Of a stretch of 64,000 nucleotides of DNA, positions 20,763 to 56,453 are shown piece after piece (position 1 is the stretch's first letter; each line of letters starts with the position of its first letter). The notes beneath the pieces were generated by a model. The model saw only the letters and a list, made by a program, of their open reading frames with translations. It made no database searches and was not told the DNA's origin. The DNA comes from Arthrobacter bambusae (GTDB lineage Bacteria; Actinomycetota; Actinomycetes; Actinomycetales; Micrococcaceae). The position numbers were made by a program, and so were the translations under genes. Where the stretch lies: assembly GCF_030812595.1 (NCBI RefSeq), contig NZ_JAUSSZ010000001.1, forward strand, positions 186,001-250,000, written 5' to 3'.

Positions 20763-20776
20763 GGGCCAGAAGTCCT
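20763..20776 (-). promoter_or_regulatory. DevR/DosR-like box
   Basis: Minus-strand AGGACTTCTGGCCC, 85 bases upstream of the tandem USP at 20678. It fits the island-wide 14-bp pattern. Confidence 0.55.
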
Positions 20777-20977
20777 GCCCGCAGCCCTCGAGGACGCTCG
20801 TCGACCGTCCGGGATCGTCCAGGAAAGCCTCTTCATTCCCGTCATGCTGGTCCCGTTGACGCGGCCGGGCACGCCTGAGCGATCACACTCGGCGGGGTCC
20901 GCTATGGGATCAGCTCATCGGCATTCTGAGCCCGACGCTGATAATCCGTCAGGCCTTGAGCGCGGGGAATCCCTGAA

Positions 20978-21439
20978 TTAGTTGTTTCCGGCTTCCTGGG
21001 TGACCAGAAGGACGGGGCATTTTGCGTGCGCAGCGCAGGCGTGGCTCACGGAACCGATAGCTTGGTCCAGGAAACCGCCTCCTCCGTGGCGGCCAATCAC
21101 AAGCAGTGTGGCGTTCCGGCTTTCCTCGACAAGGACTTTGGCCGGCGCTCCGAATTTGACGGTGACCGTCAGGTTCTCCGGCCGCTTTGTGTCGAATGCC
21201 CGGTGGACGGCTTGCTCGACCAGTTCCTTCGCTGATTCCTCCAACTGGGCCGTGAATTTGTTGAGCCCCGGTTCCAGGCGCGAAGAGAGAATCAGATCAG
21301 ACGTACCCACACAGGTAATGACCTCCAGAGGGATGTCGAAGTGCACGGCCATCCTCCCGGCCCATTGCAGCGCGGCTGAGGAATATTCGGAGCCATCTAC
21401 GCCCACGATGACCCGATTCGAGGTCGGTTCGGTGTTCAT
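20978..21439 (-). CDS. Universal stress protein, single domain
   Basis: 153-residue single Usp domain. VIVGVDGSEYSSAALQWA gives the first strand and conserved Asp; the ATP-binding loop is GRHGGGGFLDQAIGSVSHA (about residues 121-139), followed by CPVLLV. The start at 21439 is the only good ATG. A DevR-type box lies 36 bases upstream, in the right place for activation. Transcribed in the same direction as the USP operon downstream but separated from it by about 300 bases. Confidence 0.93.
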   Translation of the reverse strand: MNTEPTSNRVIVGVDGSEYSSAALQWAGRMAVHFDIPLEVITCVGTSDLILSSRLEPGLNKFTAQLEESAKELVEQAVHRAFDTKRPENLTVTVKFGAPAKVLVEESRNATLLVIGRHGGGGFLDQAIGSVSHACAAHAKCPVLLVTQEAGNN

Positions 21440-21474
21440 TGCACCACCTTGTCTGGGCGGCGACCGGGAGGCTA

Positions 21475-21488
21475 GGGCCGAAAGTCAC
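21475..21488 (-). promoter_or_regulatory. DevR/DosR-like box
   Basis: Minus-strand GTGACTTTCGGCCC ends 36 bases before the USP start at 21439. The identical 14-mer occurs at 56440-56453 before another USP. Confidence 0.65.
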
Positions 21489-21506
21489 CGTTCAGGCTTC
21501 CACCCG

Positions 21507-21761
21507 TTACGGACTCTTTGGCGGACCGGATTCCTTCCGGCAGCTGGGGCAGAGACCGGGGGCCTTTGCCCCAGGGCCCGCAGGGCCTCCCGGGATGATC
21601 TCCAGATTGACCAATTCCCGAAGGAGGGCCCCGCTTACCGCCTGGGGTGGGGGGCCATAAGATGCGGTTACCATCAGCCCGGCGCCAAGGAGGATTCCGT
21701 CCCCTGTATCGATGACGCCGGAATCATTCGCGGCACTGTCAACGGTCAGGACTTCGGGCAT
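21507..21761 (-). CDS. Hypothetical small ORF (weak)
   Basis: 84 codons between two promoters. The product (VLTVDSAANDSGVIDTGDGI, then a hydrophobic middle and a C-terminal CPSCRK pair) has balanced composition and GC-rich third positions, but no family match and no ribosome site. It could be a real small protein with a metal-binding CPxC end or chance. Listed mainly because the surrounding 480 bases hold no other gene. Confidence 0.25.
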   Translation of the reverse strand: MPEVLTVDSAANDSGVIDTGDGILLGAGLMVTASYGPPPQAVSGALLRELVNLEIIPGGPAGPGAKAPGLCPSCRKESGPPKSP

Positions 21762-21850
21762 GGGTGCCGACTGTGCCGTTGTTACTGACCCTCTACCGCC
21801 GTTGCTACCGACTCCACCGGCGACAAGGGCCGAATTGCCCGGATTGAGTC

Positions 21851-21864
21851 ATGACCTTCGGCCC
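21851..21864 (+). promoter_or_regulatory. DevR/DosR-like box
   Basis: ATGACCTTCGGCCC, 62 bases upstream of the internally deleted USP at 21927. The operator outlived the intact gene. Confidence 0.5.
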
Positions 21865-27554: not shown

Positions 27555-27568
27555 AGTGCCGAAAGCCC
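27555..27568 (-). promoter_or_regulatory. DevR/DosR-like box
   Basis: Minus-strand GGGGCTTTCGGCAC, 87 bases before the split-barrel gene at 27468. Confidence 0.5.
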
Positions 27569-27657
27569 CTAGCGGCGGGCCCTTCCCGGCGGCTGCCGGA
27601 TGTCCGTGGGTGCCCATGACCAAGTCCAAGCCTTCCCGGGGGCGCATGGTGGAGAGA

Positions 27658-27671
27658 GTGACTTTTGGCCC
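27658..27671 (+). promoter_or_regulatory. DevR/DosR-like box
   Basis: GTGACTTTTGGCCC, 68 bases before the USP start at 27740. It differs by one base from the boxes of the USPs at 21439 and 56369. Confidence 0.62.
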
Positions 27672-29323: not shown

Positions 29324-29337
29324 GGGTCGAAAGTCCC
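29324..29337 (-). promoter_or_regulatory. DevR/DosR-like box
   Basis: Minus-strand GGGACTTTCGACCC, 103 bases upstream of the SDR start at 29221. One of the best matches to the DosR half-site GGGACT. Confidence 0.6.
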
Positions 29338-30264: not shown

Positions 30265-30278
30265 AGGACCTTCGGCCC
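30265..30278 (+). promoter_or_regulatory. DevR/DosR-like box
   Basis: AGGACCTTCGGCCC, 61 bases upstream of the alcohol dehydrogenase ATG at 30340. It could also have served the divergent PEP-synthase gene. Confidence 0.58.
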
Positions 30279-31792: not shown

Positions 31793-31834
31793 GATGGGTA
31801 CGGTTAGGGGCTTATGCCCCTAACCGTACCCATC
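31793..31834. promoter_or_regulatory. 42-bp perfect palindrome containing a DevR-like box
   Basis: Arms of 19 bases (31793-31811 and 31816-31834, GATGGGTACGGTTAGGGGC and its complement) match without error around a TTAT centre. The inner 14 bases (31807-31820, GGGGCTTATGCCCC) are a DevR-type box. It lies between divergent genes (truncated split-barrel and BON protein), 129 bases before the BON ATG. A terminator is unlikely because there is no T-run and no gene ends there. Confidence 0.7.
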
Positions 31835-34277: not shown

Positions 34278-34612
34278 GCCGCGGTGATCGCAGACGGTGC
34301 TGGGTTCTATGACATCAAATTAGCAGGGGCATCAGCCGGCGTAATATGAAGGATACCTTCGGCAGGCGAGGCAGTCCTTGGCGTTCTGCTTATCCCTGCT
34401 CTGGCCTTCCTGCTCCCCGCCGCCATTGCAGACTGGCGCTCCACAAGACGGCACAAAACCACTCTCCACACATTGGAGCTTCATCATCGGCGCTAGTCGC
34501 GGATCCGCACCCGCGGACCCTGTCCGAGTGGGGGCTTTGTGCCCTGTCTCGGGAACTCGGGCGGTGCCTATCATTGCCGGTGTCGAATCCTCTGCATGGA
34601 AGGACTTGTACG
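34278..34612. other. Intergenic region with coding-like scrap
   Basis: About 335 bases. A plus frame around 34360-34494 without a start reads VLGVLLIPALAFLLPAAIAD then WRSTRRHKTTLH, which looks like the end of a membrane protein, possibly another relic. The DUF805 promoter with a DevR-type box is at the right end. Confidence 0.35.
34531..34544 (+). promoter_or_regulatory. DevR/DosR-like box, weaker
   Basis: GGGGCTTTGTGCCC, 68 bases upstream of the DUF805 gene. The right half is shifted by one base relative to the consensus. Confidence 0.4.
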
Positions 34613-40547: not shown

Positions 40548-40561
40548 GGGTCCAAGGACCC
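40548..40561. promoter_or_regulatory. DevR/DosR-like box in divergent promoter
   Basis: GGGTCCAAGGACCC, six-base arms perfect around AA. It lies 82 bases before the cytochrome operon and 67 before the split-barrel gene at 40629, so one site could serve both. Confidence 0.6.
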
Positions 40562-40628
40562 TATTGGATGATTCCGGCCGCGTGCATGCTGAAATGGCTT
40601 GGTATTCCGACCACCGAAAGGACCGACC

Positions 40629-41657: not shown

Positions 41658-41691
41658 GGGCCGAAAGGCCCGGTGATGTGACTAAATGCCC
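41658..41691 (+). promoter_or_regulatory. Tandem DevR/DosR-like boxes
   Basis: GGGCCGAAAGGCCC (41658-41671) and GTGACTAAATGCCC (41678-41691). Their centres are 20 bases apart, two helical turns, as in cooperative DosR promoters. They lie 63-97 bases upstream of the SHOCT gene and may also serve the broken split-barrel gene. Confidence 0.68.
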
Positions 41692-44507: not shown

Positions 44508-46916
44508 TTAAGGACGAGGCGCTGTCCAGACCCAGCTCCGGATTTCCGGAAGGTCTTCGAAGTGCTCGCGGATGTACTGTTTGTGAGCATCCAGCTGCCT
44601 CCGGCAGAAGTCGCTGAGTTCATCCGCGCCGGTGACCTGCCGGTGAACGCGTCGCAGCGCTTCGAGGACGAGATGGTACCGGCTCATCTTATTCAGGACC
44701 ACCATGTCGAAAGGTGTGGTGGTGGTTCCCTGTTCGTTGTAGCCACGGACGTGGAATCGTTCGGGACGCGGCCGTCCATGCAGAAGCTGGTGCAGGGCGC
44801 GGGCGTAGCCGTGCCAGGCCATGATGACTTCTCCGTCGGCAGTGAAGAGTTCTTCGAACTTTGGACCGGAAAGGCCGTGGGGGTGGGTGTCGCGCGGTGG
44901 AAGGACCATGGCATCCATGACGTTGACCACGCGGACCGTGAGTTCAGGGAGATGCCTTTGCAGCAACCACGCTGCGGCTAGTGTCTCTTCGGTGGCGATG
45001 TCCCCTGCGCAGGCCATGACGACGTCGGGCCTGGCCCGGGCGCCGGTAGGTTCCTCGTTACCGGCCCAGGACCAGACGGATGCTCCCGCAGCGGCGTGTC
45101 GGCGGGCCTCCTCAAGCGTTAGGTACTGCGGGTGGGGTTGTTTGTCCACTACCACCAGGTTCACGTAGTCCTTGCTCCGCAGTATGTGTTCGGCGGTGAC
45201 GAGGAGGGTGTTGGCGTCCGGAGGCAGGTAGACGCGGGTGACTGTCCCTGACAGGGACAGCACAGTGTCGATCAGTCCGGGTCCCTGGTGGCTGAATCCG
45301 TTGTGGTCGTTGCGCCAGCAGGTGGAGGTCAGGAGGATGTTCAGGCTTGGCACGGGTGCGCGCCATTCAAGTTCCCTTGCGTGTTGGAGCCATTTGGCGT
45401 GTTGGATGGTCATCGATGCGCTGACCATCGCGAAAGCCTCATAGCTGGCAAAGACCCCATGGCGACCCGTGAGCAGGTAACCCTCCAGCCAGCCTTGGCA
45501 CAGATGCTCGGAGAGGACTTCCATAACTCTGCCACCCGCTGAGACGTGGTCTTCGGCTAGTGCATGCTCGCCGTTCCTGGCAGGTTCCAGAAGGCAGCGG
45601 TCGGTGGCTTCGAACACAGCCCCGAGCCGGTTGCTGTTGGTTTCATCAGGGCAGAAGAGCCGGAACCGGGGACTGTCGGCCGTATCGATATAGATGTCCC
45701 GGAGCAGTTCACCCAGGGGCCTGGTGGTCTCATGGATGACCGATCCCCGGGGCGCCGGGCGGACCGCGTATCGCTCCAAGTCGGGGATATTGAGGGCAGC
45801 TCCGGGGCCGCCAAGCCCGGCATGGGCCGCGCCCATGCGGAGGCTGCCTTCCGGTGCTAGGGCCGCCAGTTCCGGGACGAGCCGGCCTGCGCTGTCGAAG
45901 AGGGTTTCCGGCCGGTAGGAGCGCATCCAGGCTTCCAGCTGGGCCAGATGTTGCGGATTTTCGCGAACGTTTGGAAGAGGCACCTGGTGGGAACGAAAGG
46001 TGCCTTCCACGGGGAGGCCGTCGACGGTATCTGGGCCCGTCCACCCTTTGGGCGTCCGCAGGATGATGGCAGGCCACCGCGCCGGGCCGTGTACGCCATG
46101 GCTATGCGCCTGGGATTGCAGCTCGCGAATACGACCATAAGCCTTGTCCATCGCGGCGGCCAGAGCGCGGTGGACAAGGAACGGGTCATCGCCGGCGACG
46201 GTCAGCGGATCCCAGCCGTGGGCCGAAAGGAGCCCCTCGACCTCCTCATCGGATTCACGGCCCAGAACGGTTGGACCCGAGATCTTGTGCCCGTTCAGAT
46301 GCAGGATCGGCAGCACGGCACCGTCCCTCGCGGGATTGAGGAAGGAAGGAGCTTTCCATGATGCTTCCAATGGGCCGGTTTCGGCTTCGCCGTCGCCGAT
46401 AACACAGGCGACAATCAGCCCCGGGTTGTCCATGGCGGCGCCGGTGGCGTGCATCAAGGAGTAGCCAAGTTCGCCTCCTTCGTGGATGGAACCAGGAGTC
46501 GCTGGGCCGACGTGGCTCGAGATCCCGCCGGGCGTTGAAAATTGCCGGACAAGGCGCCTCAGTCCCGGGAGGTCCATCCCTACCTTCGGGTAGATCTCCG
46601 AGTAGGTGCCTTCAAGATAGACATTGGCGACCACCGCCGGACCACCATGGCCCGGACCCGCAACGAAGAGCACATTTGCGGAGGTTCGCGTGATCAGCCG
46701 GTTCAAGTGGGCATAGATCAGCGACAAACCAGGACTGGTTCCCCAATGTCCCAGAAGCCGTGGCTTGATGTGGGCTGGCAGCAACGGCTCACGCAGCAGA
46801 GGATTTTCCTGGAGGTAGATCTGGGCCACGCTGAGGTAGTTGGCGGCGGACCAATACCGGTTCAGCAAGTCAAAGTCCTCGCTGGCAGCCTCACCTATTG
46901 CTGTTTCCATGGGCAT
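44508..46916 (-). CDS. xfp: Phosphoketolase (xylulose-5-P/fructose-6-P)
   Basis: 802-residue TPP enzyme that splits xylulose-5-phosphate or fructose-6-phosphate into acetyl phosphate plus a sugar phosphate. Family blocks: GPGHGGPAVVANVYLEGTYS, GGELGYSLMHATGAAMDNPG, TPP/Mg motif GDGEAETGPLEASW, TPKGWTGP, and CWRNDHNGFSHQGPG. With acetate kinase upstream it yields ATP without glycolysis or oxygen. A second Met (46910) is possible as start. A DevR-type box lies about 98 bases upstream, overlapping the ackA stop. Confidence 0.95.
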   Translation of the reverse strand: MPMETAIGEAASEDFDLLNRYWSAANYLSVAQIYLQENPLLREPLLPAHIKPRLLGHWGTSPGLSLIYAHLNRLITRTSANVLFVAGPGHGGPAVVANVYLEGTYSEIYPKVGMDLPGLRRLVRQFSTPGGISSHVGPATPGSIHEGGELGYSLMHATGAAMDNPGLIVACVIGDGEAETGPLEASWKAPSFLNPARDGAVLPILHLNGHKISGPTVLGRESDEEVEGLLSAHGWDPLTVAGDDPFLVHRALAAAMDKAYGRIRELQSQAHSHGVHGPARWPAIILRTPKGWTGPDTVDGLPVEGTFRSHQVPLPNVRENPQHLAQLEAWMRSYRPETLFDSAGRLVPELAALAPEGSLRMGAAHAGLGGPGAALNIPDLERYAVRPAPRGSVIHETTRPLGELLRDIYIDTADSPRFRLFCPDETNSNRLGAVFEATDRCLLEPARNGEHALAEDHVSAGGRVMEVLSEHLCQGWLEGYLLTGRHGVFASYEAFAMVSASMTIQHAKWLQHARELEWRAPVPSLNILLTSTCWRNDHNGFSHQGPGLIDTVLSLSGTVTRVYLPPDANTLLVTAEHILRSKDYVNLVVVDKQPHPQYLTLEEARRHAAAGASVWSWAGNEEPTGARARPDVVMACAGDIATEETLAAAWLLQRHLPELTVRVVNVMDAMVLPPRDTHPHGLSGPKFEELFTADGEVIMAWHGYARALHQLLHGRPRPERFHVRGYNEQGTTTTPFDMVVLNKMSRYHLVLEALRRVHRQVTGADELSDFCRRQLDAHKQYIREHFEDLPEIRSWVWTAPRP

Positions 46917-47013: not shown

Positions 47014-47027
47014 GGGCCATATGGCCT
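47014..47027 (-). promoter_or_regulatory. DevR/DosR-like box
   Basis: GGGCCATATGGCCT within TTAGGGCCATATGGCCTTAG. It is a near-perfect palindrome between ackA and xfp, so the two may have separate promoters. Confidence 0.55.
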
Positions 47028-48193
47028 TAGAAGTTCCGAATCGCTGGATCTTTCGAAAGTACGACGGCGGCCGTCGCCTCCGCGATGGCCCGTTCCTCGT
47101 CGCTGGGGACCACGAGGACGGGAAACGCTGATTCGTCGGTACTGATGGCACGGATACCGCTGTTTTCCGTCTGGTTGCGAGCTTCGTCGATGCTGATGCC
47201 AAGGGGCCCGAGCAGCGCCATCACCTGGGATCTGAAATGACCGGAATGCTCACCGATCCCGCCTGTAAAGACCAAGACTCCGGCCGTTCCGACAACCATG
47301 TTGTAGGCGGCGATGTACTTAGCCAGCCGGTAGGCGGCCATCTCGGTGGCGAGGAGCGCCCGGGGATCGCCGTGTTGCGCGGCGTCCTGGACGGTGCGCA
47401 TGTCGGCTGATCCGGACAGGCCCAGCAAGCCCGCCCGATGGTTGAGGAGCTCATCGACTTGGTCCGGTCCGAGGCCGCGGCGCTGCAGCAGCGTGACAAT
47501 GGAGGGATCAAGATCACCGGAACGTGTACCCATGACCAGCCCTTCCAAGGGGGTCATTCCCATGGACGTGTCGATGCTGCGGCCGTTCTTGACGGCGGTC
47601 ACGGAGGCGCCATTTCCAAGGTGTGCCACTACGGCGTTGAGCGAAGTCATCGGGACTCCGAGGAACGCCGCGGCCTCGCGGCAGGCGATCTCGACGGAGA
47701 TCCCGTGGAAGCCGTAGCGCCGGATCCCGTATTTCGTGGAGAGGTCTTCCGGGATGGCGTAGCGGGAGGCGTATTCGGGCACGGTGTGGTGGAAGGCCGT
47801 GTCGAAGACGGCTACCTGCGGTGTGTCCGGCCACCGGGCGGCGGTTGCATGCATGCACGCCACACTTGCCGCGTTGTGGAGCGGCGCTAACTCGGCAAGT
47901 TCCTCGATGGTCGCAATAACCTCGGGGGTGACGCGGACAGGAGAGCTGAAGTGATCAGCGCCATGCACCACTCGATGACCGATCGCGTCGATGCCGGTTC
48001 CACGGTAAGCGTGCGGGACCGCCGCGTCGACCACGTCGAACACGTTCTCCAGGAAACCAGGATTCAGCGTGCCCTCTCTGGGGCTGTCGATGACCCGATC
48101 CAGCAGGATCCTAGTCTTCGTGCCAGGTGTTCCGCTCCGCCGCAGCTGGTACTTCAAGGATGAGGAACCTGGATTCAACACAAGGATCAGCAC
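47027..48193 (-). CDS. ackA: Acetate kinase
   Basis: 388 residues, ASKHA fold. It forms ATP and acetate from acetyl phosphate, the product of the phosphoketolase next door. Signatures: VLNPGSSSLKYQL at the start, GHRVVHGAD, VFDTAFHHTVPEYA, YGFHGIS, AHLGNGASV and FTGGIGEHS. The GTG at 48193 has AAAGGA upstream. No phosphotransacetylase gene is near, which supports coupling to Xfp. Two DevR-type boxes lie in the 175-base gap to the divergent USP. Confidence 0.96.
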   Translation of the reverse strand: MLILVLNPGSSSLKYQLRRSGTPGTKTRILLDRVIDSPREGTLNPGFLENVFDVVDAAVPHAYRGTGIDAIGHRVVHGADHFSSPVRVTPEVIATIEELAELAPLHNAASVACMHATAARWPDTPQVAVFDTAFHHTVPEYASRYAIPEDLSTKYGIRRYGFHGISVEIACREAAAFLGVPMTSLNAVVAHLGNGASVTAVKNGRSIDTSMGMTPLEGLVMGTRSGDLDPSIVTLLQRRGLGPDQVDELLNHRAGLLGLSGSADMRTVQDAAQHGDPRALLATEMAAYRLAKYIAAYNMVVGTAGVLVFTGGIGEHSGHFRSQVMALLGPLGISIDEARNQTENSGIRAISTDESAFPVLVVPSDEERAIAEATAAVVLSKDPAIRNF

Positions 48194-48226: not shown

Positions 48227-48240
48227 GGGCCATGGGACCC
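48227..48240. promoter_or_regulatory. DevR/DosR-like box
   Basis: GGGCCATGGGACCC, 34 bases upstream of ackA in the ackA/USP divergent region. Centre 56 bases from the next box. Confidence 0.58.
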
Positions 48241-48282: not shown

Positions 48283-48296
48283 GGGTCTTACGGCCC
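48283..48296. promoter_or_regulatory. DevR/DosR-like box
   Basis: GGGTCTTACGGCCC, 72 bases before the USP start at 48369. Confidence 0.58.
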
Positions 48297-48368: not shown

Positions 48369-49256
48369 GTGAAGAAGATTCTTGTTGGTGTCGATGGGTC
48401 CGTGGCAGGGGGTGCTGCTGCGGACTGGGCTGCCGAACGGGCCCGTGACCTTGGACTTCAGCTCAACCTGGTCCATGCCGTTCCCGAGCCTTGGGCGTTC
48501 CCGGAGAAGGCTCTCCACACGGAGGCGATCGCGCAGGCCAAGGACCTGCTGAAAGGGGAGACAGCACGGATCGCCGCAAGGTTTCCCTCCTTGGAGGTGC
48601 TGACGACACTGAGTTCGGGAGAGCCCGCCGAGACCATGCGCAAGCTTTCCGCAGGCGCGGAAATGGTCGTCGTTGGAACCGATCGGCGTCCTGGCAACCA
48701 CGGCGAAGGATTCGGTTCTGTCAGCTTTCAGATTGCGGTGATCAGCCATTGCGTCGTTGCGGTTGTTCCAGCTCCTTCAGCGCGTGACTCGTCCGGCGTG
48801 GTGGTTGGTGTCGATGGCTCCCGGGACTCCGAATTCGCCGTCGAGTATGCAGCTGACGAGGCAGAGCGAATGGGAGAAGTACTCGCGGTCGTTCATGCCG
48901 GTGGCGGCCCTGGTCCTGTTCCATCTTCGTCCGGTAGGTCAGTGCGCGGGGCTGACCCTTCAGGGTCTGAGCACCTTGGGCACGGGCTGTTGTCCGAATC
49001 GGTCCGGAGAATGGAGCGGCGGCACCCGGGTTTGGTCATCCGTGGCATCCTGGACCTTGAGCGCGCTCCGGCCGAAGTCCTCCTAGACGCCAGTGCGCGT
49101 GCACGCCTGCTGGTCATGGGCTGCAAAGGAAGGGGCGGGGCCCGCGTGCTGGTCGGTTCCGTGGCTCAGCACGTGCTGCTTAATGTCCAGTGCCCGACGT
49201 TGATAACCCGCCCCGATCTGCAGGCTATCGGCCAGGACCCGCGTTATCCCGGCTGA
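48369..49256 (+). CDS. Universal stress protein, tandem UspA domains
   Basis: 295 residues. Domain one starts ILVGVDGSVAGGAAADWA but has a degenerate loop (GTDRRPGNHGEGFGS). Domain two starts VVVGVDGSRDSEFAVEYAAD and has MGCKGRGGARVLVGSVAQH. A Ser/Gly-rich insert follows the second domain's second strand. I start at the GTG at 48369 (MKKILVG); the open frame begins earlier but covers the operators. Its 3' end overlaps the convergent alcohol dehydrogenase by 32 bases. Confidence 0.92.
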   Translation: MKKILVGVDGSVAGGAAADWAAERARDLGLQLNLVHAVPEPWAFPEKALHTEAIAQAKDLLKGETARIAARFPSLEVLTTLSSGEPAETMRKLSAGAEMVVVGTDRRPGNHGEGFGSVSFQIAVISHCVVAVVPAPSARDSSGVVVGVDGSRDSEFAVEYAADEAERMGEVLAVVHAGGGPGPVPSSSGRSVRGADPSGSEHLGHGLLSESVRRMERRHPGLVIRGILDLERAPAEVLLDASARARLLVMGCKGRGGARVLVGSVAQHVLLNVQCPTLITRPDLQAIGQDPRYPG

Positions 49257-50301
49257 GGATGACCTTCAGGGCGTGTGTTTCCGCTGCCCTTGAGAAGGTG
49301 TCGTAGGCATCGATGATCTGATCCAGGGTGAAATGGTGGGTCGCGAATTTCTCGGCGGGAATCTTGTGCTGGGCCACCAGCCGTAACAGCATCGGGGTGG
49401 TGTTGGTATTGACCAAGCCCATGCTGATGTTGAGGTTGCGGATCCAGAGGTCCTGGAGGCGCAGTTCGACGGATCTTCCGTGGACGCCGATGTTGGCGAC
49501 ATTCCCGCCGGGGCGGACGAGCCGCAAGGCCATGTCGAAGGTGTCCGGGATTCCGACTGCTTCAATGGCGACATCCACTCCTTCGCCGTCGGTGTAGGAC
49601 ATGACGTCGCTGATCCAATCCGGGTTGGACGGGTTCACCGTCCCTGTTGCGCCGAACTCCCGGGCCCGGGCAAGTCGCCCCTCGTCAGGATCGATGGCGA
49701 TGATGGTGGCGGCGCCGTGGAGGCCTGATGTGGCTATCGCTGCCAGGCCGATGGGGCCTGCTCCTACGACCGCGACGACGTCACCTGGCTTGATGTGACC
49801 AGCCTGGACTCCGATTTCGAAGCCCGTGGGCAGAATGTCGGACAGCATGATCGCCTCGTCGTTGGTGACTCCGCGGGGTAATTTGTAGAGCGAGTTATCA
49901 GCGTAGGGGACGCGCACATACTCGGCTTGGGTGCCGTCAATGAGGTGGCCGAATATCCAGCCTGTTCCGGCTTGGCCTTCCTCGCCGGCGCAATGTGAGT
50001 ACAGGCCCCTCTTGCAGTTCTCGCAGTGCCCGCAGGACTTGATGCAGGAGATGAGGACGCGGTCCCCGGCCCTGAGGCCGGTGACCGAGGAACCCACTTC
50101 CGTGACCGTTCCGACGCCCTCATGCCCGAGGACCCGTCCCTCCTGGACGGCTGGAACGTCACCTTTGAGAATGTGAAGGTCCGTACCGCAGATCGTCGTG
50201 GTATCGACACGGACGACGGCGTCGGTGGGGTTGACGATGTGCGGATCAGGAACGTCGGTCCAAGACTTCTTTCCGGGGCCCTTATAAACGAGTGCTTTCA
50301 T
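49225..50301 (-). CDS. Zinc-dependent alcohol dehydrogenase
   Basis: 358-residue medium-chain dehydrogenase. Catalytic zinc: ICGTDLHILKGD and LGHEGVGTV; structural zinc: KSCGHCENCKRGLYSHC; NAD loop VVGAGPIGLAAI followed by acidic IAIDPDEGRLARA, which favours NAD. It is a different subfamily from the enzyme at 30340 (class III/AdhC-like). It starts 52 bases after the split-barrel gene stop and is probably the last gene of a three-gene operon from 51353. Role: fermentative redox balance. Confidence 0.93.
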   Translation of the reverse strand: MKALVYKGPGKKSWTDVPDPHIVNPTDAVVRVDTTTICGTDLHILKGDVPAVQEGRVLGHEGVGTVTEVGSSVTGLRAGDRVLISCIKSCGHCENCKRGLYSHCAGEEGQAGTGWIFGHLIDGTQAEYVRVPYADNSLYKLPRGVTNDEAIMLSDILPTGFEIGVQAGHIKPGDVVAVVGAGPIGLAAIATSGLHGAATIIAIDPDEGRLARAREFGATGTVNPSNPDWISDVMSYTDGEGVDVAIEAVGIPDTFDMALRLVRPGGNVANIGVHGRSVELRLQDLWIRNLNISMGLVNTNTTPMLLRLVAQHKIPAEKFATHHFTLDQIIDAYDTFSRAAETHALKVILSRDNAGPGR

Positions 50302-50353
50302 GATGCTCCATCCAGGAAGACAAGCAGTACCGCCGGCGACGCCGGCAGCAAAG

Positions 50354-50818
50354 TTAGTGGAACAGCTCCGAGCGGGCATCCCACAGGGGAGTGTTCCAGA
50401 TGTCAGGCCTGGTGGCCTTGAACCGTCGACCGGTGAGAGCATCCAACGTCAAACGCAAATAGTGGCTCTTGCTCCCCGGCTGCCAAGGATCCAGGTGGAG
50501 GGCATCGGCTGCGGCCTTTTCCTGCAGGTCGACGATGAGGTGCGCCGGTCCTCTGGCGACGACGCTCCAGGCTTTCCCGGAACCCGCCTCGAAGCCATCG
50601 ATTTCGAGTGCGCAGGGGTCCCGCATCGTGCTCCAAAATTTCGTGCCGACGCCTGTCCGGAAGACGATGGATCCACGGTCCACGACGTAGTTCACGGGGA
50701 AAATGTCCGGATGCTTCCCGACAATCACGGCCAGCCTACCAACGGTGGCGTGGCCAAGCAGTTCCAAGCATTCCTCCGGGCTCAGTCTTTCGACCGCATC
50801 CGCTGATTGGGGGTTCAT
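50354..50818 (-). CDS. PNPOx-like flavin split-barrel protein
   Basis: 154 residues: LSPEECLELLGHATVGRLAV, HPDIFPVNYVVDRGSIVFRT, WSVVARGPAHLI, LDPWQPGSKSHYLRL and LTGRRFKATRPDIWNTPLWD. A complete barrel, closest in pattern to the gene at 50883, from which it may have arisen by tandem duplication. A DevR-type box lies 37 bases upstream. Cofactor unknown. Confidence 0.88.
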   Translation of the reverse strand: MNPQSADAVERLSPEECLELLGHATVGRLAVIVGKHPDIFPVNYVVDRGSIVFRTGVGTKFWSTMRDPCALEIDGFEAGSGKAWSVVARGPAHLIVDLQEKAAADALHLDPWQPGSKSHYLRLTLDALTGRRFKATRPDIWNTPLWDARSELFH

Positions 50819-50854: not shown

Positions 50855-50868
50855 GGGGCTTTAGGCCC
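50855..50868 (-). promoter_or_regulatory. DevR/DosR-like box
   Basis: GGGGCTTTAGGCCC, 37 bases before the split-barrel gene at 50818, in the short gap between tandem paralogues. Confidence 0.6.
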
Positions 50869-50882: not shown

Positions 50883-51353
50883 TCATTCGAGTCCGGCCCG
50901 GGTGGCGTCGTCCAGGGGACTCCACCATGTCAGGGGAGGGGTGACGGTAAATCGGCGTCCAGTGATCGACGTCGGGACGATGCGGATGAAGTGGTCTTTT
51001 CGGCCCGCTTGCCAGGGAAAAAGGAGAAGCCCGACAGTATCAAGCACCTCCTGGGTGAGCTTGATGGCGACAGCCTCCCCTTTCACGACTACGCTCCACG
51101 CCACCCCGGTATCCGGGTTGACGCCGTCGGCCTCCAGCGCAACCGCGGTTTCTCCCAGGGCCGAGTGGAGCTTGGTTCCTTCTCCGGTCCGGAATACGAG
51201 GGTGCCGTGGTCCACCTTGTAGTTGATCGGGAAGATGTCCGGATGATCTTCCACCCACACGGCGAGGCGTCCTACCGAAACGCCACGCATGAGCTCCCAG
51301 CATTGTTGCGGCTGCAGGACCTCCGGCGCAGGGGTTGATGGTTTGTTCGTCAT
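50883..51353 (-). CDS. PNPOx-like flavin split-barrel protein
   Basis: 156 residues from MTNKPS (51353): PQQCWELMRGVSVGRLAVWV, HPDIFPINYKVDHGTLVFRT, WSVVVKGEAVAI, FPWQAGRKDHFIRIVPTSIT and TGRRFTVTPPLTWWSPL. It gives the most complete reference for the family in this window. The upstream ATG at 51407 would cover the operator. It is divergent from the sensor kinase gene, with about 165 bases between them. Confidence 0.88.
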   Translation of the reverse strand: MTNKPSTPAPEVLQPQQCWELMRGVSVGRLAVWVEDHPDIFPINYKVDHGTLVFRTGEGTKLHSALGETAVALEADGVNPDTGVAWSVVVKGEAVAIKLTQEVLDTVGLLLFPWQAGRKDHFIRIVPTSITGRRFTVTPPLTWWSPLDDATRAGLE

Positions 51354-51389: not shown

Positions 51390-51403
51390 GGGCACAAAGA
51401 CCC
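51390..51403 (-). promoter_or_regulatory. DevR/DosR-like box, weaker
   Basis: Minus-strand GGGTCTTTGTGCCC, 37 bases before the split-barrel gene and 117 before devS. Same shifted right half as the box at 34531. Confidence 0.42.
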
Positions 51404-51519: not shown

Positions 51520-53235
51520 ATGAACGGCTCTATCCCAGAGCCCGAGAGGGCTGAGCGTCCGCCTGTCACCGGGATCAGGATCGAGGACCTACTGAGGGAC
51601 TTTCTGGCCCGCGCAGGAGAGCTGCTGCATGCCCAGGAACACATGCGGGGGCTTCTGGAAGCCGTGGTGGCGGTTGCGGAAGACCTGAGCCTTGAATCCG
51701 TGCTGGAGAGGGTGGTCAAATCCGCATGTCGGCTTCTGCATGCCCGATATGGCGCGCTGGGTGTCATCGGGGAGAACAAGTCTCTGAGCCACTTCGTCAC
51801 AGTGGGCATCGACGGAGACCTTGCACGCCGCATCGGTCCGCTACCTACCGGGCACGGTGTACTCGGTCTGCTGATCAGCGAACCTGCGCCGCTTCGCCTT
51901 CATGATTTGCGTGAGCACCCGAAGTCCTACGGATTCCCAGCAAACCACCCACCGATGAAGTCGTTTCTCGGCGTCCCGGTGCGCGTTCGTGACGTCGTTT
52001 TCGGCAATCTTTACTTGACGGAAAAGGAAGACGGCGGCGATTTCACCTCGGAGGACGAGGATCTTGCCGTGGCGTTGGCTGCGGCTGCTGGCGTCGCCAT
52101 CGAGAATGCTCGCCTTTACCAAGACGCCCGCCGTCGCGCTTCCTGGCTTGAAGCGTGCATGGACGTGACCGGTCGGATGCTCGGTGATGGCCAGATCGCC
52201 GATTCGGACAATGTCGGACTGGACCTTATCGCGGACAGGGCGCTCCGGGAATCGGACTCCCAGCTGGCCCTGATCCTCATTCCGGACGGCGGCGTGGGGT
52301 CGTACGGCGTTGCGGGGGCCGCAGGGACGGGCAGCGCCAGTTTCGCGGGGAGCATCTTGCCCATGGATTCGCCCGCCATCAGGTCAGTCGCCGCCACCGG
52401 GACGCCAGCCTGTTTGGACGATGCCGGAGACATCCTCAGCCCGGCTGCCGGCGTATCCCTCGGAAAGCTCTTGGCGATCGATCTCAGCGCCCACGGAGCT
52501 CACCATGGGCTCCTGTTTCTGGTTCGAGGCCCTGGAACGGGGCCATTCGCTAAGACGGATGTGGAGATGGGGGCCGTCTTTGGCTCACATGTGGCCTTGG
52601 GCCTGGAGCTTGACCGGATTCACCGGCTACGTGAACAGTTGCTGGTTTTCTCGGACCGGGACCGCATTGCCCGGGACCTGCACGACCTCGTCATCCAACG
52701 CCTTTTCGCTGCCGGACTCAGCATCCAGAGTCTTCGGCGGTTCACAACAGGCGAACCTGCCCTGAACCGGATTGATGCGGTCACGGCGGAGCTGGATGAG
52801 ACCATCCGGGACCTCCGGAACACCATCTACTCGTTGCGTTCTTCGGGCGAACAAGAGTTGCTGAGCAGCCGGATTCTGCAGACTGTCCGCACTGCCACCA
52901 GGTCGCTGCCCTTCGCCCCCCGCCTGACGCTCAATGGAGAAGTCGATTCCGTGCTGGACGACGAAACAGTCTCCAACGCGCTGGCGGTCATCTCCGAAGG
53001 GCTCAGCAACGCGGTCCGTCATTCGGACGCGCAGGCAATCAGCGTGTCAGTGTCGGTGGAAGACGGCATCCTGACCTTAGTCATCGACGACGACGGCAGG
53101 GGCTTCAGGGACGCCGTGCCCGGAAATGGCCTGGCGAACATGGAACAGCGCGCCTCGGAGTTGTGCGGTTCCTTTGAGGTGACCAGCGCCCCGACGAAGG
53201 GCACTACTGTGTTGTGGTCCGTACCGGTCCACTGA
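51520..53235 (+). CDS. devS: DevS/DosT-like haem GAF sensor histidine kinase
   Basis: 571 residues, soluble. GAF-A spans about 57-200, GAF-B about 205-370, then a HisKA_3 dimer with phospho-His388 (RDRIARDLHDLVIQRLF) and an ATPase domain (Asn497 in SEGLSNAVRHSD, DDDGRGF at 523-529, GNGLANM). In GAF-A, His143 (GFPANHPPMKSFLGVPVRVR) and Tyr165 (FGNLYLTEK) are spaced 22 apart, exactly as the haem His149 and Tyr171 of M. tuberculosis DosS. It should therefore bind haem and sense O2, NO or CO, or redox state. Convergent with devR, 20 bases between stops. Confidence 0.92.
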   Translation: MNGSIPEPERAERPPVTGIRIEDLLRDFLARAGELLHAQEHMRGLLEAVVAVAEDLSLESVLERVVKSACRLLHARYGALGVIGENKSLSHFVTVGIDGDLARRIGPLPTGHGVLGLLISEPAPLRLHDLREHPKSYGFPANHPPMKSFLGVPVRVRDVVFGNLYLTEKEDGGDFTSEDEDLAVALAAAAGVAIENARLYQDARRRASWLEACMDVTGRMLGDGQIADSDNVGLDLIADRALRESDSQLALILIPDGGVGSYGVAGAAGTGSASFAGSILPMDSPAIRSVAATGTPACLDDAGDILSPAAGVSLGKLLAIDLSAHGAHHGLLFLVRGPGTGPFAKTDVEMGAVFGSHVALGLELDRIHRLREQLLVFSDRDRIARDLHDLVIQRLFAAGLSIQSLRRFTTGEPALNRIDAVTAELDETIRDLRNTIYSLRSSGEQELLSSRILQTVRTATRSLPFAPRLTLNGEVDSVLDDETVSNALAVISEGLSNAVRHSDAQAISVSVSVEDGILTLVIDDDGRGFRDAVPGNGLANMEQRASELCGSFEVTSAPTKGTTVLWSVPVH

Positions 53236-53255: not shown

Positions 53256-53954
53256 TCAACGGACTGGCCCGGAGCCGGGTTCCGGTCCATGGGCAATATA
53301 GACGGCCGCCTGGGTGCGGCGTTCGAATCCCAGCTTCGCCAACATCGAGGACACGTAGTTCTTCACGGTTTTTTCGGCGAGCTGCATGACTTCTCCGATC
53401 TGCCTGTTTGTCAGGCCCTGCCCGACCAGATCCAGGACCCGCCTCTCTTGCGGCGTCAATGAGGCAACCCTGGGATCCACACGCTTGGGTTCAGTAAGTC
53501 CCTGGATGATCCTCGCCTTCACTGCCGCATCAAACAGCGATTCACCGCGCGCGGCCCTGTGAAGGGCTCCAATCAGGTCGGTGCCGCCGATTTCTTTCAG
53601 GACGTACCCCGCGGCACCGGCGAGCACCGCTCCGCGCAGGGCCTGTTCGTCGTCGTAACTGGTCAGAATCAGGCAATTGAGGGTGGGGTCGACGGAACGC
53701 ACCTCCCGGCATACTTCGATGCCGGTGCCGTCGGGCAGCCTCGCGTCCAGGACTGACACGTCCGGCCGCAAGGCGGGAATGCGTCGGGCGGCCTCCTCCG
53801 CGGAACCGGACATGCCTACCACCACGAAGCCCTCGCTTTCCAGCAGTTCCTGAAGCCCCCGGCGAACAAGCTCATGATCGTCAAGGACATAGACCCGGAT
53901 CGGCGGCGCGCCAGCGGCCCGGGCGTCGCTCAGGGGTGGTACTGGGCGTTCCAT
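53256..53954 (-). CDS. devR: DevR/DosR-like response regulator
   Basis: 232 residues. Receiver domain (about 19-135): acidic Asp25/Asp26, phospho-Asp70 (VSVLDARLPDGTG), Lys120. LuxR-type HTH (about 164-222): LTPQERRVLDLVGQGLTNRQ, then AEKTVKNYVSSMLAKLG and ERRTQAAVYIA. AEKTVKNYVS and ERRTQAAV match mycobacterial DosR, and Lys195, Lys198 and Asn199 correspond to DNA-contact residues Lys179, Lys182 and Asn183. Two boxes in the gap to the next USP suggest autoregulation. Phosphorylated by the adjacent kinase (inferred). Confidence 0.93.
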   Translation of the reverse strand: MERPVPPLSDARAAGAPPIRVYVLDDHELVRRGLQELLESEGFVVVGMSGSAEEAARRIPALRPDVSVLDARLPDGTGIEVCREVRSVDPTLNCLILTSYDDEQALRGAVLAGAAGYVLKEIGGTDLIGALHRAARGESLFDAAVKARIIQGLTEPKRVDPRVASLTPQERRVLDLVGQGLTNRQIGEVMQLAEKTVKNYVSSMLAKLGFERRTQAAVYIAHGPEPGSGPVR

Positions 53955-54049: not shown

Positions 54050-54063
54050 GGGCCAAAGGACCC
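54050..54063. promoter_or_regulatory. DevR/DosR-like box
   Basis: GGGCCAAAGGACCC, 96 bases upstream of devR and 87 upstream of the USP at 54150. Centre 25 bases from the next box. Confidence 0.6.
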
Positions 54064-54074
54064 AGGCCGGTGCC

Positions 54075-54088
54075 ATGACTTTCGACCC
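54075..54088 (+). promoter_or_regulatory. DevR/DosR-like box
   Basis: ATGACTTTCGACCC, 61 bases before the USP start at 54150. Confidence 0.58.
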
Positions 54089-54149
54089 TTTTTGACGGCA
54101 CCACCATCTGCGCATTCTTAGAGAAACCGCGGGAACGGAAAGGAACCTC

Positions 54150-54668
54150 ATGGCCACGCGAACCCCGCATGACAAGATCGTCGTCGGCGTCGACGGCTCG
54201 GATGCCTCGGTCGAGGCCCTGCGCGAAGCCCACCGCCTTGCATCAGCACTGGGAATCAGCGTCGAAGGCTGGATCTGCTGGGATTTCCCCGCTGGACATG
54301 AGGCCTACGAAATGATGGGGCGGGACGGATTCAGCCACCAAGCATCCGAGATCCTCCACGACGCGATGACGAAGGCGTTCGGCCCGGAATTGCCTCCGAA
54401 CGTCCGGACCAGGCTTGTCCTAGGTTCCGCCCGGCAGTCCCTCATCGACGCCAGCCGGTTCGCCTCCTTGCTGGTTGTCGGACGGCGCGGCCACGGCGGG
54501 TTCAACGGCTTGCTCCTCGGTTCGGTGAGCGCAGCCTGCGTCGCCCACGCGCGTTGCCCCGTTCTTGTTGTCCACACGCCTGATTCAAGCGAGCACGACG
54601 AGCCTCGCCCCGGCGCCGGGGCGGCAAGCAAAACACCGCGATCGATCAAAGGAACACAATCTAAATGA
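54150..54668 (+). CDS. Universal stress protein, single domain
   Basis: 172 residues: IVVGVDGSDASVEALREAHR, then CWDFPAGHEAYEMMG, and ATP loop GRRGHGGFNGLLLGSVSAAC. It has a C-terminal extension rich in Pro, Ser and Lys not seen in the other single-domain Usps. ATG at 54150 with GGAAAGGAA upstream. It shares its control region with devR, so it should be co-induced with the regulator. Confidence 0.93.
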   Translation: MATRTPHDKIVVGVDGSDASVEALREAHRLASALGISVEGWICWDFPAGHEAYEMMGRDGFSHQASEILHDAMTKAFGPELPPNVRTRLVLGSARQSLIDASRFASLLVVGRRGHGGFNGLLLGSVSAACVAHARCPVLVVHTPDSSEHDEPRPGAGAASKTPRSIKGTQSK

Positions 54669-54970
54669 AGAAGTGGAACCGTTGGCAGGACTGGACGGTC
54701 GTCGCCGGCATCCGGCCACGGCCGATGCCGGGTCTGCGTCCAACCTTCAGGAGACCAGCGTGAAAGGCGCCGCCCGGCCCCGGCCCCTGCAATGAACGTC
54801 TGGAAGTGAGTCCCGAGGGGGAGCCGAAGCACCGCCACGGACGCCTGCGTTCAACCGATAACTATGCGGCGGGACTTCCGGCCCTAACGCTCAGAAGCAT
54901 CGGGACGGAGACTGAACCTGCACAGGTCGGTAACGGGTCAAGATAGTTCTTAAGGAAGAGCGGACATGTC
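54669..54970. other. Intergenic region with operator
   Basis: About 300 bases without a gene. Apart from the box at 54871-54884 nothing stands out; a frame around 54700-54780 has a coding-like composition but no motif. Confidence 0.35.
54871..54884 (+). promoter_or_regulatory. DevR/DosR-like box
   Basis: GGGACTTCCGGCCC, 86 bases before the tandem USP at 54971. One of the closest matches to the DosR consensus. Confidence 0.62.
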
Positions 54971-55834
54971 GTGAAAGAACCAATAGTTGTCGGCATCAAC
55001 GATTCTGGGGCCAATGAGGCCGCGTTGACGTGGGCAATGCATCGGGCCGCGGCCCTGAAGCTGCCAGTAAGGCTCGTGCACGCCGTGGATGACAGATGGA
55101 TGTCCGAAGCCTTTGTCTACAACGAGGTGGCCAGCAAGGCAGCGACAAAACTTCTGACCACGGCCAAAGCCCACGCGGCCCGGCTGGAACCGACCGTTGA
55201 CGTTCGCACGGTATTGGTCTCCGGCACCGCAGGGTATGCCCTCCGCAAAAGATCCAAGAAAGCCTCCTTGGTGGTCATAGGCTCCGGGACCCATGTCAGG
55301 GCCGGAGGCCGGGTCACCGACCGAGCCCTCCAGATCGCTTCCGTGGCGCTATGTCCGGTGGCCGTCGTCGGCGAAGACCCACTGAAGAACCGCCACGGCG
55401 TCATCGTCGGAGTGGACGGGTCGGAGGAATCAACCCAAGCGGTAGCCTTTGCTGCATCCGAGGCAGACCGCGAAGGAGAGGAGCTGACCGTGCTGCACGC
55501 CTTCCCGATGCCCGGCTCCTGGTTGCAAAAGGGGCTGCCCGAGGGCAGCTTCGTCGAGCAATTCATGGAAGAAGAACGGATGGTCCTCGCCGAAACAATT
55601 GCCGGCCTGGCGGAAGAGTATCCCGACCTCGTCGTCCACAAAGTCCTGGCCAGCGATCCACCGGCCCAAGCCCTCACCGAAGCAGCATCGAAGGCGAAGT
55701 TACTGGTCCTCGGCAGCCGCGGCAGCGGCAGAATCAAGCGGCTCTTGCTGGGCTCAACCGCCCACGCTGTCCTTGCCCAGTTGGCCTGCCCGACCATCAT
55801 CATCCGCATACGCCGGGTCAAGAACACCAAGTAG
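54971..55834 (+). CDS. Universal stress protein, tandem UspA domains
   Basis: 287 residues. Domain one IVVGINDSGANEAALTWAMH with GYALRKRSKKASLVVIGSGT; domain two GVIVGVDGSEESTQAVAFAA with ATP loop GSRGSGRIKRLLLGSTAHAV, ending RIRRVKNTK. It is a clear paralogue of the USP at 19818. GTG start at 54971, with AAGGAAGAG about 12 bases upstream. The first loop is degenerate, as in its paralogue, so only the second domain may bind ATP. Confidence 0.93.
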   Translation: MKEPIVVGINDSGANEAALTWAMHRAAALKLPVRLVHAVDDRWMSEAFVYNEVASKAATKLLTTAKAHAARLEPTVDVRTVLVSGTAGYALRKRSKKASLVVIGSGTHVRAGGRVTDRALQIASVALCPVAVVGEDPLKNRHGVIVGVDGSEESTQAVAFAASEADREGEELTVLHAFPMPGSWLQKGLPEGSFVEQFMEEERMVLAETIAGLAEEYPDLVVHKVLASDPPAQALTEAASKAKLLVLGSRGSGRIKRLLLGSTAHAVLAQLACPTIIIRIRRVKNTK

Positions 55835-55925
55835 AACGAGGGGTTCTTCCCCGGAGGAAGGGCGGGCACGAGGATTCCAGCTTGTCCGATTCGACGCCCC
55901 GTTCTTCTTCGGCAACTGCCATGGT

Positions 55926-56369
55926 TCAGCTACTTTCCGGAACGTGGACCACAAGAACCGGGCAATGGGCGTGGGCAACACAGGCTGAACTCACCGACCC
56001 GAGCAGCAGGCCGCCAAATCCACCGTGGCCACGCCTGCCGAGGACGAGCATGTCCGCTTCCCGGCTAGCCTCGATAAGGGATTCCCGGGCGTGACCACGG
56101 ACGACGCGTGAGACGACGTTGTCCGGCAATTCCGGACCGAACGCGTTATCCAAGGACTCCTTGAGGACCTGTCCGGCTCCTTCCTCGAAGTTATCTATGC
56201 CCATGGCCAAGTAGCCGCCATAGACCTGAGGGAACTCCCAATAAGCGACGGCCATGAGTTGCGCTCCCAATGGCACCGCAAGCCTCTGGGCCTGCCGCAG
56301 TGCCTCGACGGAGGCTTCGGATCCATCGACGCCAACAACGATCCTTGCTCTGCGTGCTTCCTCGCCCAT
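55926..56369 (-). CDS. Universal stress protein, single domain
   Basis: 147 residues: IVVGVDGSEASVEALRQAQR, YWEFPQVYGGYLAMG, ATP loop GRRGHGGFGGLLLGSVSSAC and CPVLVVHVPESS. Close paralogue of the gene at 27740. Convergent with the tandem USP. A DevR-type box identical to that of the USP at 21439 lies 71 bases upstream. Confidence 0.93.
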   Translation of the reverse strand: MGEEARRARIVVGVDGSEASVEALRQAQRLAVPLGAQLMAVAYWEFPQVYGGYLAMGIDNFEEGAGQVLKESLDNAFGPELPDNVVSRVVRGHARESLIEASREADMLVLGRRGHGGFGGLLLGSVSSACVAHAHCPVLVVHVPESS

Positions 56370-56439
56370 GACTTTCCTCCCCGCGTTAAGGGTGATTCCG
56401 GTATCCTGCTAGCCTCACCCGAAGCTCTCCCAGGTTGTA

Positions 56440-56453
56440 GGGCCGAAAGTCAC
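56440..56453 (-). promoter_or_regulatory. DevR/DosR-like box
   Basis: Minus-strand GTGACTTTCGGCCC, 71 bases before the USP start at 56369. Confidence 0.65.

What the first reader, a model, noticed from the sequence alone, without database searches (positions are those of the whole stretch)
20763..56453. A DevR/DosR-type dormancy regulon island with about 20 operator copies
Seen: 21 near-palindromes of the form GGGnCy-nn-nGnCCC, mostly 35-105 bases upstream of starts; G3, C5 and C12 are invariant after orientation. Listed sites: 20763, 21475, 21851, 27555, 27658, 29324, 30265, 31807, 34531, 40548, 41658, 41678, 47014, 48227, 48283, 50855, 51390, 54050, 54075, 54871, 56440. Known: M. tuberculosis DosR binds TTSGGGACTWWAGTCCCSAA and controls USPs, HspX, a CtpF ATPase and PNPOx-like genes. 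Inference: the same circuit, with a different metabolic load (phosphoketolase-acetate kinase, two alcohol dehydrogenases, b6-like cytochrome), operates here.
Basis: partly seen in the sequence, partly recalled or inferred. Interest (0 to 1): 0.93.

Follow-up and report, generated by a model that had tools for sequence, protein, structure and literature searches.

The report
DevR-type oxygen regulon drives fermentation genes
An Arthrobacter-like bacterium carries a DevR-type regulator, a likely oxygen-sensing kinase, and 19 look-alike DNA sites each lying 30-31 bases before a promoter-like hexamer, so low oxygen would likely switch on stress proteins and an acetate-forming ATP route: a known kind of switch with a new set of targets.

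Summary
All 21 listed near-palindromes are in the sequence, and 19 survive the tests I ran. The genome is Arthrobacter-like. A DevR-like regulator (53256-53954 -) and a DevS-like two-GAF kinase (51520-53235 +) sit inside the island, convergent rather than in one operon. The 14-base core with an A/T centre occurs 30 times in 4.28 Mb, 8 of them in this island. The strongest new evidence is geometry: 19 of 21 sites are followed, 30-31 bases from their centre towards a gene, by a -10-like NANNNT hexamer (about 5% by chance), which puts the operator near -42, as for a class II activator. The spacing recurs around sites in devR loci of relatives and not around weak background matches. Two listed sites fail: 48227 (weak match) and 31807 (middle of a 42-base perfect hairpin). 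Operators precede devR in 30 of 30 same-genus loci examined. They precede phosphoketolase or acetate kinase in 12 of 16 devR-bearing genomes examined, in 0 of 5 lacking devR (one keeps a palindrome without the hexamer), and in 0 of 9 loci of a second phosphoketolase type. I read it as a DevRS/OsdKR-type hypoxia regulon with a fermentative load. Binding, oxygen sensing and induction are untested.

The parts
53256..53954 (-). DevR/DosR-like response regulator (232 aa): Asp70, Lys195, Lys198, Asn199 align with DosR Asp54, Lys179, Lys182, Asn183
   Evidence: next best match in genome 35% identical
51520..53235 (+). DevS/DosT-like sensor kinase, GAF-GAF-HisKA_3-HATPase; His143 and Tyr165 align with DevS His149 and Tyr171 (numbering recalled); convergent with devR
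   Evidence: other matches in genome partial and 30-32% identical
54050..54063 (.). operator for devR (-10 AACAAT, minus strand); distal site for usp 54150
54075..54088 (.). operator for usp 54150 (-10 CATTCT, plus strand); distal site for devR
47014..47027 (.). operator for phosphoketolase and the P-type ATPase behind it (-10 CACCGT)
48283..48296 (.). operator for acetate kinase (-10 TATGGT)
44508..46916 (-). xylulose/fructose-6-phosphate phosphoketolase (802 aa)
47027..48193 (-). acetate kinase (388 aa)
41989..44466 (-). P-type cation ATPase, 41 bases behind phosphoketolase; ion not established
50855..50868 (.). operator for PNPOx-like gene that overlaps alcohol dehydrogenase (-10 TAGCGT)
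49225..50818 (-). PNPOx-like gene (50354-50818) overlapping zinc alcohol dehydrogenase (49225-50442)
51390..51403 (.). operator for PNPOx-like 50883 (-10 TAGCCT, minus; start re-placed to 51353, predicted); no -10 on the devS side
50883..51353 (-). PNPOx-like gene with predicted start (ORF as listed reaches 51407)
40548..40561 (.). one operator with -10 hexamers on both sides: CATGCT for PNPOx 40599 (+) and TAGCGT for the cytochrome b cluster (-)
   Evidence: both hexamers in 7 of 7 close homologues, this genome included
38651..40547 (-). 82-aa protein, cytochrome b/b6-like protein (39607-40302), 317-aa protein of unknown function
40599..41072 (+). PNPOx-like gene
41658..41671 (.). operator (-10 TAGGCT, minus) before a PNPOx-like frame that has one in-frame stop here
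41678..41691 (.). operator (-10 GACACT, plus) before SHOCT-domain ORF 41749-42006
27556..27569 (.). operator for PNPOx-like 27007 (-10 TAGCCT, minus)
27658..27671 (.). operator for universal stress protein 27740 (-10 CAGGCT, plus)
29324..29337 (.). operator for short-chain dehydrogenase (-10 CAGTCT, minus); predicted start about 29257
30265..30278 (.). operator for alcohol dehydrogenase (-10 GAAACT, plus); predicted start about 30340
34531..34544 (.). operator for DUF805 gene (-10 TATCAT, plus); predicted start about 34613
20763..20776 (.). operator for double universal stress protein 19818 (-10 GAAGAT, minus)
21475..21488 (.). operator for universal stress protein 20978 (-10 CAAGGT, minus)
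21827..21864 (.). operator pair 21827 and 21851 (24 bp apart; -10 CACTCT of 21851, plus) before a Usp-like half ORF (21927-22205) and beta-CASP nuclease (22218-23603)
54871..54884 (.). operator for universal stress protein 54971 (-10 GAGACT, plus)
56440..56453 (.). operator for universal stress protein 55926 (-10 GAGGCT, minus)
31793..31834 (.). not an operator on this reading: 19-bp perfect inverted repeat with TTAT loop containing reader site 31807
48227..48240 (.). reader site not supported: weak matrix score, no -10

Best explanation
This is a DevR-type regulon island in which a likely haem-based oxygen-sensing kinase (DevS-like) is predicted to phosphorylate the DevR-like regulator when oxygen falls, and the regulator would then bind about 19 palindromes and switch on the promoters behind them. 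Shown: the sites exist, are enriched in the island and conserved in relatives, and a -10-like hexamer starts 30-31 bases from the operator centre. Inferred: that this spacing makes the operator a class II activator site at about -42, overlapping the -35 region. At the devR/usp and 41658/41678 pairs, two operators 20-25 bp apart would serve two back-to-back promoters, each the distal site of the other. At 40548 one palindrome would serve two divergent promoters. The predicted output is universal stress proteins and PNPOx-like proteins, plus a fermentative module. In that module phosphoketolase and acetate kinase would make ATP as acetate, alcohol and short-chain dehydrogenases would reoxidise NADH, and a P-type pump and a b-type cytochrome cluster would tend ion and electron balance. 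The operator before devR predicts positive autoregulation. devS has no such promoter on its side of 51390.
For: Regulator and kinase homology with conserved functional residues, with no other close copy in the genome. Site enrichment: with the hexamer [TC]ANNNT added, matrix score 10 or more gives 15 promoter-like hits in the island (14 sites, 40548 counted both ways, one being 38608, not a reader site), 0 in the rest of the window and 6 in 1.18 Mb. Fixed spacing without gene information: A...T at +31 in 20 of 48 window orientations (mean over offsets 1.8), 51 of 164 in L025-L046 (5.9), 49 of 228 in L047-L103 (6.2), but 6 of 124 around weak background matches (4.2). In gene direction 19 of 21, chance 0.051. 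Conservation: 23 of 23 related named loci L024-L046 carry hits, 90 against 13.6 expected; 30 of 30 same-genus devR loci have an operator (score 9 or more) within 400 bp upstream and 27 of 30 have two or more. Phosphoketolase test: 12 of 16 devR-bearing, 0 of 5 devR-less, Fisher p 0.006, not corrected for kinship. Cytochrome promoter pair in 7 of 7 close homologues.
Against: No binding, phosphorylation, oxygen or expression data. A matrix from published S. coelicolor OsdR sites gives only modest enrichment (11 hits at score 9 or more in 41 kb against 3.5 expected). In the wider set of named loci only 15 of 23 devR genes have a site of score 10 or more within 250 bp, and most metabolic orthologues there have none. 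A devR-less genome (G105) keeps a strong operator before phosphoketolase, though without the -10. 4 of 16 devR-bearing genomes lack the operator-plus-hexamer directly before phosphoketolase or acetate kinase, one of these having it before an upstream PNPOx gene. Ten more distant cytochrome loci have no such promoter. A DevR homologue of Microlunatus was reported to bind GTTCAC direct repeats instead (PMC6754071, passages). Gene directions and some starts were assigned after the sites were known.
Confidence: 0.87

Rival explanations
1. The operators and the DevR-like regulator are real, but the signal is redox state, NO or nutrient stress rather than oxygen, and the regulon is mainly a stress programme in which acetate formation is overflow rather than fermentation.
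For: DevS is described as a redox sensor, and NO, CO and ascorbate also induce DevR (PMC5069765 passages). Universal stress protein genes are the most often controlled targets across named loci: 24 of 31 usp and 12 of 32 pnpox with an operator.
Against: The haem-ligand His and distal Tyr positions of the oxygen sensors are kept. Dehydrogenases and phosphoketolase plus acetate kinase fit fermentation. A paper states that fermentative metabolism was detected in Arthrobacter (PMC2947987 passage), and a reference title says the same.
Confidence: 0.25
2. A different regulator, not the island's DevR homologue, recognises the palindromes.
For: 31 other regulator-like matches exist in the genome; G105 keeps an operator without devR.
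Against: The next best match is 35% identical. Operators sit before devR itself in 30 of 30 same-genus loci examined.
Confidence: 0.05
3. The palindromes are chance or compositional matches in GC-rich DNA.
For: The bare 14-mer core occurs 143 times genome-wide and its reversed control 298 times.
Against: Clustering, A/T centre, conservation and fixed hexamer spacing.
Confidence: 0.01

Closest known systems
DevR/DosR-DevS/DosT dormancy regulon of Mycobacterium tuberculosis
   Same: Regulator and sensor homology, contact and haem residues, GGGNC...GNCCC operator core, universal stress and PNPOx-type targets.
   Different: devS and devR are convergent, not one operon (the mycobacterial order is recalled). 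Positions 4 and 11 of the operator are not fixed as A and T. The load includes phosphoketolase, acetate kinase and a cytochrome b cluster. Hsp20 has no good operator.
OsdR-OsdK regulon of Streptomyces coelicolor (PMC5069765; parts 1-2 of 9 and passages read)
   Same: An island of universal stress, PNPOx and alcohol dehydrogenase genes around the regulator; consensus AGGGCCGATCGGCCCT; near-identical sites (its AGGGCCGAAAGTCCCG against AGGGCCGAAAGTCACC at 21475 and AGGGTCGAAAGTCCCA at 29324 here).
   Different: osdR-osdK are an operon. Its listed targets include nitrate reductase and pyruvate phosphate dikinase. The words phosphoketolase, acetate kinase and Arthrobacter do not occur in its main text.
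DosR boxes of Rhodococcus equi (PMC2947987, passages)
   Same: DosR-type boxes NNNGGGHCNWWNGNCCCBNN reported; a phosphoketolase gene is present in that genome.
   Different: The passages seen do not link the phosphoketolase to DosR; its table of boxes is in a supplement I did not see.
PolS-PolR of Microlunatus phosphovorus (PMC6754071, passages)
   Same: DevS/DevR homologues in another non-mycobacterial actinobacterium.
   Different: Reported motif is a GTTCAC direct repeat and the targets are phosphate genes.

Membership tests
DevRS/OsdKR-type hypoxia regulon | Response regulator with receiver and LuxR-type HTH, closest to DevR | tested here: met
   Pfam; 3c3w E 4.6e-61, next best 1.3e-31
DevRS/OsdKR-type hypoxia regulon | Phospho-acceptor Asp and DNA-contact Lys/Lys/Asn | tested here: met
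   Asp70, Lys195, Lys198, Asn199; DosR residue roles recalled
DevRS/OsdKR-type hypoxia regulon | Sensor kinase with two GAF domains and HisKA_3/HATPase | tested here: met
DevRS/OsdKR-type hypoxia regulon | Haem-ligand His and distal Tyr in the first GAF domain | tested here: met
   His143, Tyr165 in alignment; numbering of DevS recalled
DevRS/OsdKR-type hypoxia regulon | Haem and oxygen binding | not testable with these tools
   needs purified protein
DevRS/OsdKR-type hypoxia regulon | Palindromic operator with GGGNC half-sites upstream of targets | tested here: met
DevRS/OsdKR-type hypoxia regulon | Operator before the regulator gene itself | tested here: met
   54050 in the window; 30 of 30 same-genus loci, 15 of 23 wider named loci at stricter limits
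DevRS/OsdKR-type hypoxia regulon | Induction by low oxygen and direct binding | not testable with these tools
   no expression or binding data
Mycobacterial DosR box in its narrow 20-mer form | A at position 4 and T at 11 of the core | tested here: not met
   position 4: 10 A, 19 C, 5 G, 8 T of 42 half-sites, with 27556 read one base off; the OsdR consensus also has C there, so this is a feature of the mycobacterial branch

The most novel reading that the evidence does not exclude
In Arthrobacter the DevR oxygen switch has been rewired from dormancy to fermentation. It directly turns on a phosphoketolase-acetate kinase ATP route, a P-type cation pump, alcohol dehydrogenases and an undescribed b-cytochrome membrane complex through promoters with one near-fixed operator-to--10 spacing. 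This would explain how these 'obligate aerobes' live without oxygen.
Probability: 0.4. Interest if true: 0.66.

Novelty: new variant of a known kind. Interest (0 to 1): 0.52.

Why it matters
It extends the DevR circuit, known mainly as the latency switch of tubercle bacilli, to Arthrobacter and its relatives. It gives a rule (operator centre, 30-31 bases, NANNNT) that predicts transcription starts and corrects gene starts. It also makes a concrete, testable link between oxygen sensing and phosphoketolase-acetate kinase energy metabolism, in a genus that can be worked on in an ordinary laboratory. In the held library my searches for phosphoketolase with DosR and dormancy, Arthrobacter with DosR and universal stress protein, and Arthrobacter with hypoxia, phosphoketolase and acetate kinase listed no such description (titles, abstract starts and, for PMC2947987, passages seen); most subscription papers are not held.

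Tried and rejected
A first genome scan used a 15-base pattern by mistake; it serves as a spacing control. The S. coelicolor matrix proved too GC-rich in its centre to be sharp. Of 25 places outside the window listed, nine were inspected. Seven lie inside coding frames. Two lie before genes: a 227-aa protein without Pfam match at C1:181379-182062, and a WXG100 protein on C2, the latter site also overlapping a listed frame. I did not add them. Site 31807 was first accepted and then rejected as a hairpin. The P-type ATPase could not be assigned an ion. Literature searches for the -42.5 position and for Arthrobacter fermentation gave little: the Eschbach 2003 paper was seen only as a reference title, and its fermentation products are recalled, not read. 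That M. tuberculosis operators lie near -42.5 is also recalled.

Limits: background is 1,184,213 bases of contigs 1-3. A further 357 kb, chosen largely around core matches, was used only for listing places, not for rates. The phosphoketolase test used the 30 best loci of about 100 matches; the second phosphoketolase copy of G028 was not fetched. The devR test used 30 loci of the 89 genomes with a match. The matrix was trained on operators first located with the window matrix, so it is not fully independent; it finds 12 of the 21 reader sites at score 8 or more. The window matrix includes 31807. Expected counts in relatives use the rate of this genome, not their own.

Full report
What is there. 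The window is G000:C1:186001-250000 of a 4.28-Mb assembly. The nearest named relatives of its regulator are Arthrobacter and other Micrococcaceae (91% identity to Arthrobacter sp. efr-133-TYG-118). Pfam scans show in 16-58 kb: seven universal stress protein genes, five PNPOx-like genes without a stop, an Hsp20 protein, a metal P-type ATPase with a C-terminal hemerythrin domain, a beta-CASP nuclease, a sulfate permease, a short-chain dehydrogenase, two zinc alcohol dehydrogenases, BON, CHAD and DUF805 proteins, a flavodoxin, a cytochrome b/b6-like protein, an ABC ATPase, a second P-type ATPase, phosphoketolase, acetate kinase, the sensor kinase and the regulator.

The sites. All 21 listed sites exist. 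A symmetric matrix shows strong G1-G3, C5 and an A/T centre, and weak preference at position 4. In leave-one-out scoring against 786 kb of the same genome, 20 of 21 stand out and 48227 does not. In 20 random halves trained on 10 sites, with the threshold set at one background hit per 36 kb, the island gave on average 10.2 further hits and 7.6 of 11 held-out sites, against 1.1 in the other 27 kb of the window. The core with an A/T centre has 30 matches in the whole genome, eight of them here.

Promoter geometry. Without using gene positions, every matrix hit of score 11 or more was taken in both orientations and the following bases were searched for a -10-like pattern. A...T peaks at one offset, 31 bases after the centre: 20 of 48 in the window, 7 of 16 in L024, 51 of 164 in L025-L046, and 49 of 228 in L047-L103 (Nocardioides, Micromonospora, Streptomyces and others). 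The means over offsets are 1.8, 0.7, 5.9 and 6.2. Background hits of score 9 or more show no peak (6 of 124, mean 4.2). In gene direction 19 of 21 reader sites have NANNNT starting at +30 or +31. The chance rate at other offsets is 73 of 1426. The two failures are the two sites that other tests also reject. From this I infer operators centred near -42. Several ORF starts as listed lie upstream of these predicted transcription starts; better starts are 29257, 30340, 34613 and 51353 (predicted). Some starts fall on the predicted transcription start itself (21439, 50818, 51353), which would mean leaderless messages.

Paired and shared operators. At devR/usp the two sites are 25 bp apart and each belongs to one of two divergent promoters. 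In 27 of 30 same-genus loci there are two or more sites upstream of devR. At 40548 a single palindrome has -10 hexamers on both sides, TAGCGT towards the cytochrome cluster and CATGCT towards a PNPOx gene, and both are present in 7 of 7 close homologues (one being this genome). Ten more distant homologues of the cytochrome gene have weak or no sites upstream and no hexamer. A further composite hit at 38608, before the ABC genes, was not seen in the relatives and is left open.

The metabolic load. Phosphoketolase occurs in the genus in a type 75-91% identical to this one and a type about 54-57% identical. Of 21 loci of the first type, 16 come from genomes with devR and 5 from genomes whose best regulator match is only 37-38% identical. 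Operator plus [TC]ANNNT hexamer lies directly before phosphoketolase or before an acetate kinase-phosphoketolase pair in 12 of 16 and in 0 of 5 (Fisher p 0.006, not corrected for kinship, this genome included). A thirteenth, G091, has it before a PNPOx gene that precedes phosphoketolase. Exceptions: G028, G071 and G107 lack it (G071 has a palindrome of score 12.1 without the hexamer); devR-less G105 keeps a strong palindrome without the hexamer, and G102 a weak one. Nine loci of the second type, eight from devR-bearing genomes, have none within 800 bp upstream. In the named loci L024-L046 sites of score 10 or more were found within 250 bp before 24 of 31 usp, 12 of 32 pnpox, 15 of 23 devR, 10 of 21 devS, 1 of 8 adhB, 1 of 2 adhA, 1 of 3 phosphoketolase, 1 of 1 acetate kinase, 1 of 1 BON, 0 of 6 hemerythrin-ATPase, 0 of 3 P-ATPase and 0 of 2 beta-CASP orthologues. 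The stress genes are therefore the common core, and the metabolic genes are regulated in fewer lineages or inside operons that this count misses.

Regulator and sensor. The recognition-helix stretch AEKTVKNYVS is identical to DosR, and the HTH region matches in 38 of 57 positions. The kinase's first GAF domain aligns along the solved GAF domains of DosT and DevS, with the His and Tyr at the haem positions. The kinase and regulator genes converge, in this window and in 21 of 23 named loci (one tandem, one without a devS match), whereas osdR-osdK form an operon and so, from recall, do the mycobacterial genes. The site 51390 has a -10 only on the PNPOx side, so devS is probably not activated from it.

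Known or new. The island works like, and on the tested features belongs with, the DevRS/OsdKR regulons. To my knowledge new are the lineage, the convergent order, the quantified promoter rule, the shared operator at 40548 and the conserved operators before phosphoketolase and acetate kinase. My searches listed no paper on this in the held library, which lacks most subscription journals.

Not shown: binding, phosphorylation, haem, oxygen response, induction, acetate production, and the ion moved by the P-type ATPase.

Noticed in passing
31793-31834: A 19-bp perfect inverted repeat with TTAT loop, found once in the genome (RNA fold -46.9 kcal/mol for the 71-nt stretch, z -8.3), between alcohol dehydrogenase and the BON gene, followed by a second 17-bp repeat at 31872-31927; no T-run follows it directly, role unknown.
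   Followed up: partly
41110-41553: PNPOx-like frame with one in-frame stop in this genome although a promoter-type operator (41658) stands before it; the matching stretches in G045, G064 and G078 have none.
   Followed up: partly
38651-40547: Trio of an 82-aa protein, a cytochrome b/b6-like protein and a 317-aa protein without Pfam or NCBIfam match; 7474 homologues of the last among scored candidates, 120 listed, those with a name called hypothetical and mostly from Micrococcaceae and Microbacteriaceae. Possibly an undescribed quinol-linked membrane complex.
   Followed up: partly
17342-19810: Heavy-metal P-type ATPase with a C-terminal hemerythrin domain, a fusion recalled from Acidothermus; a weaker palindrome at 19730 (score 11.7, hexamer GAATAT at +31) lies inside its listed frame.
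   Followed up: no
21927-22205: Short ORF resembling only the C-terminal half of a universal stress protein (Pfam match just under its cut-off), directly before a beta-CASP RNase-like gene, under the operator pair 21827/21851.
   Followed up: partly
24024-24950: Hsp20 domain occupies only the last third of the listed frame (residues 204-306 of 308); best nearby palindrome 24402 is weak and has no hexamer, unlike hspX of mycobacteria as recalled.
   Followed up: partly
L194 (G105): A genome whose best devR match is 38% identical keeps a top-scoring operator before phosphoketolase but not its -10 hexamer: possible relic of a lost regulator.
   Followed up: partly
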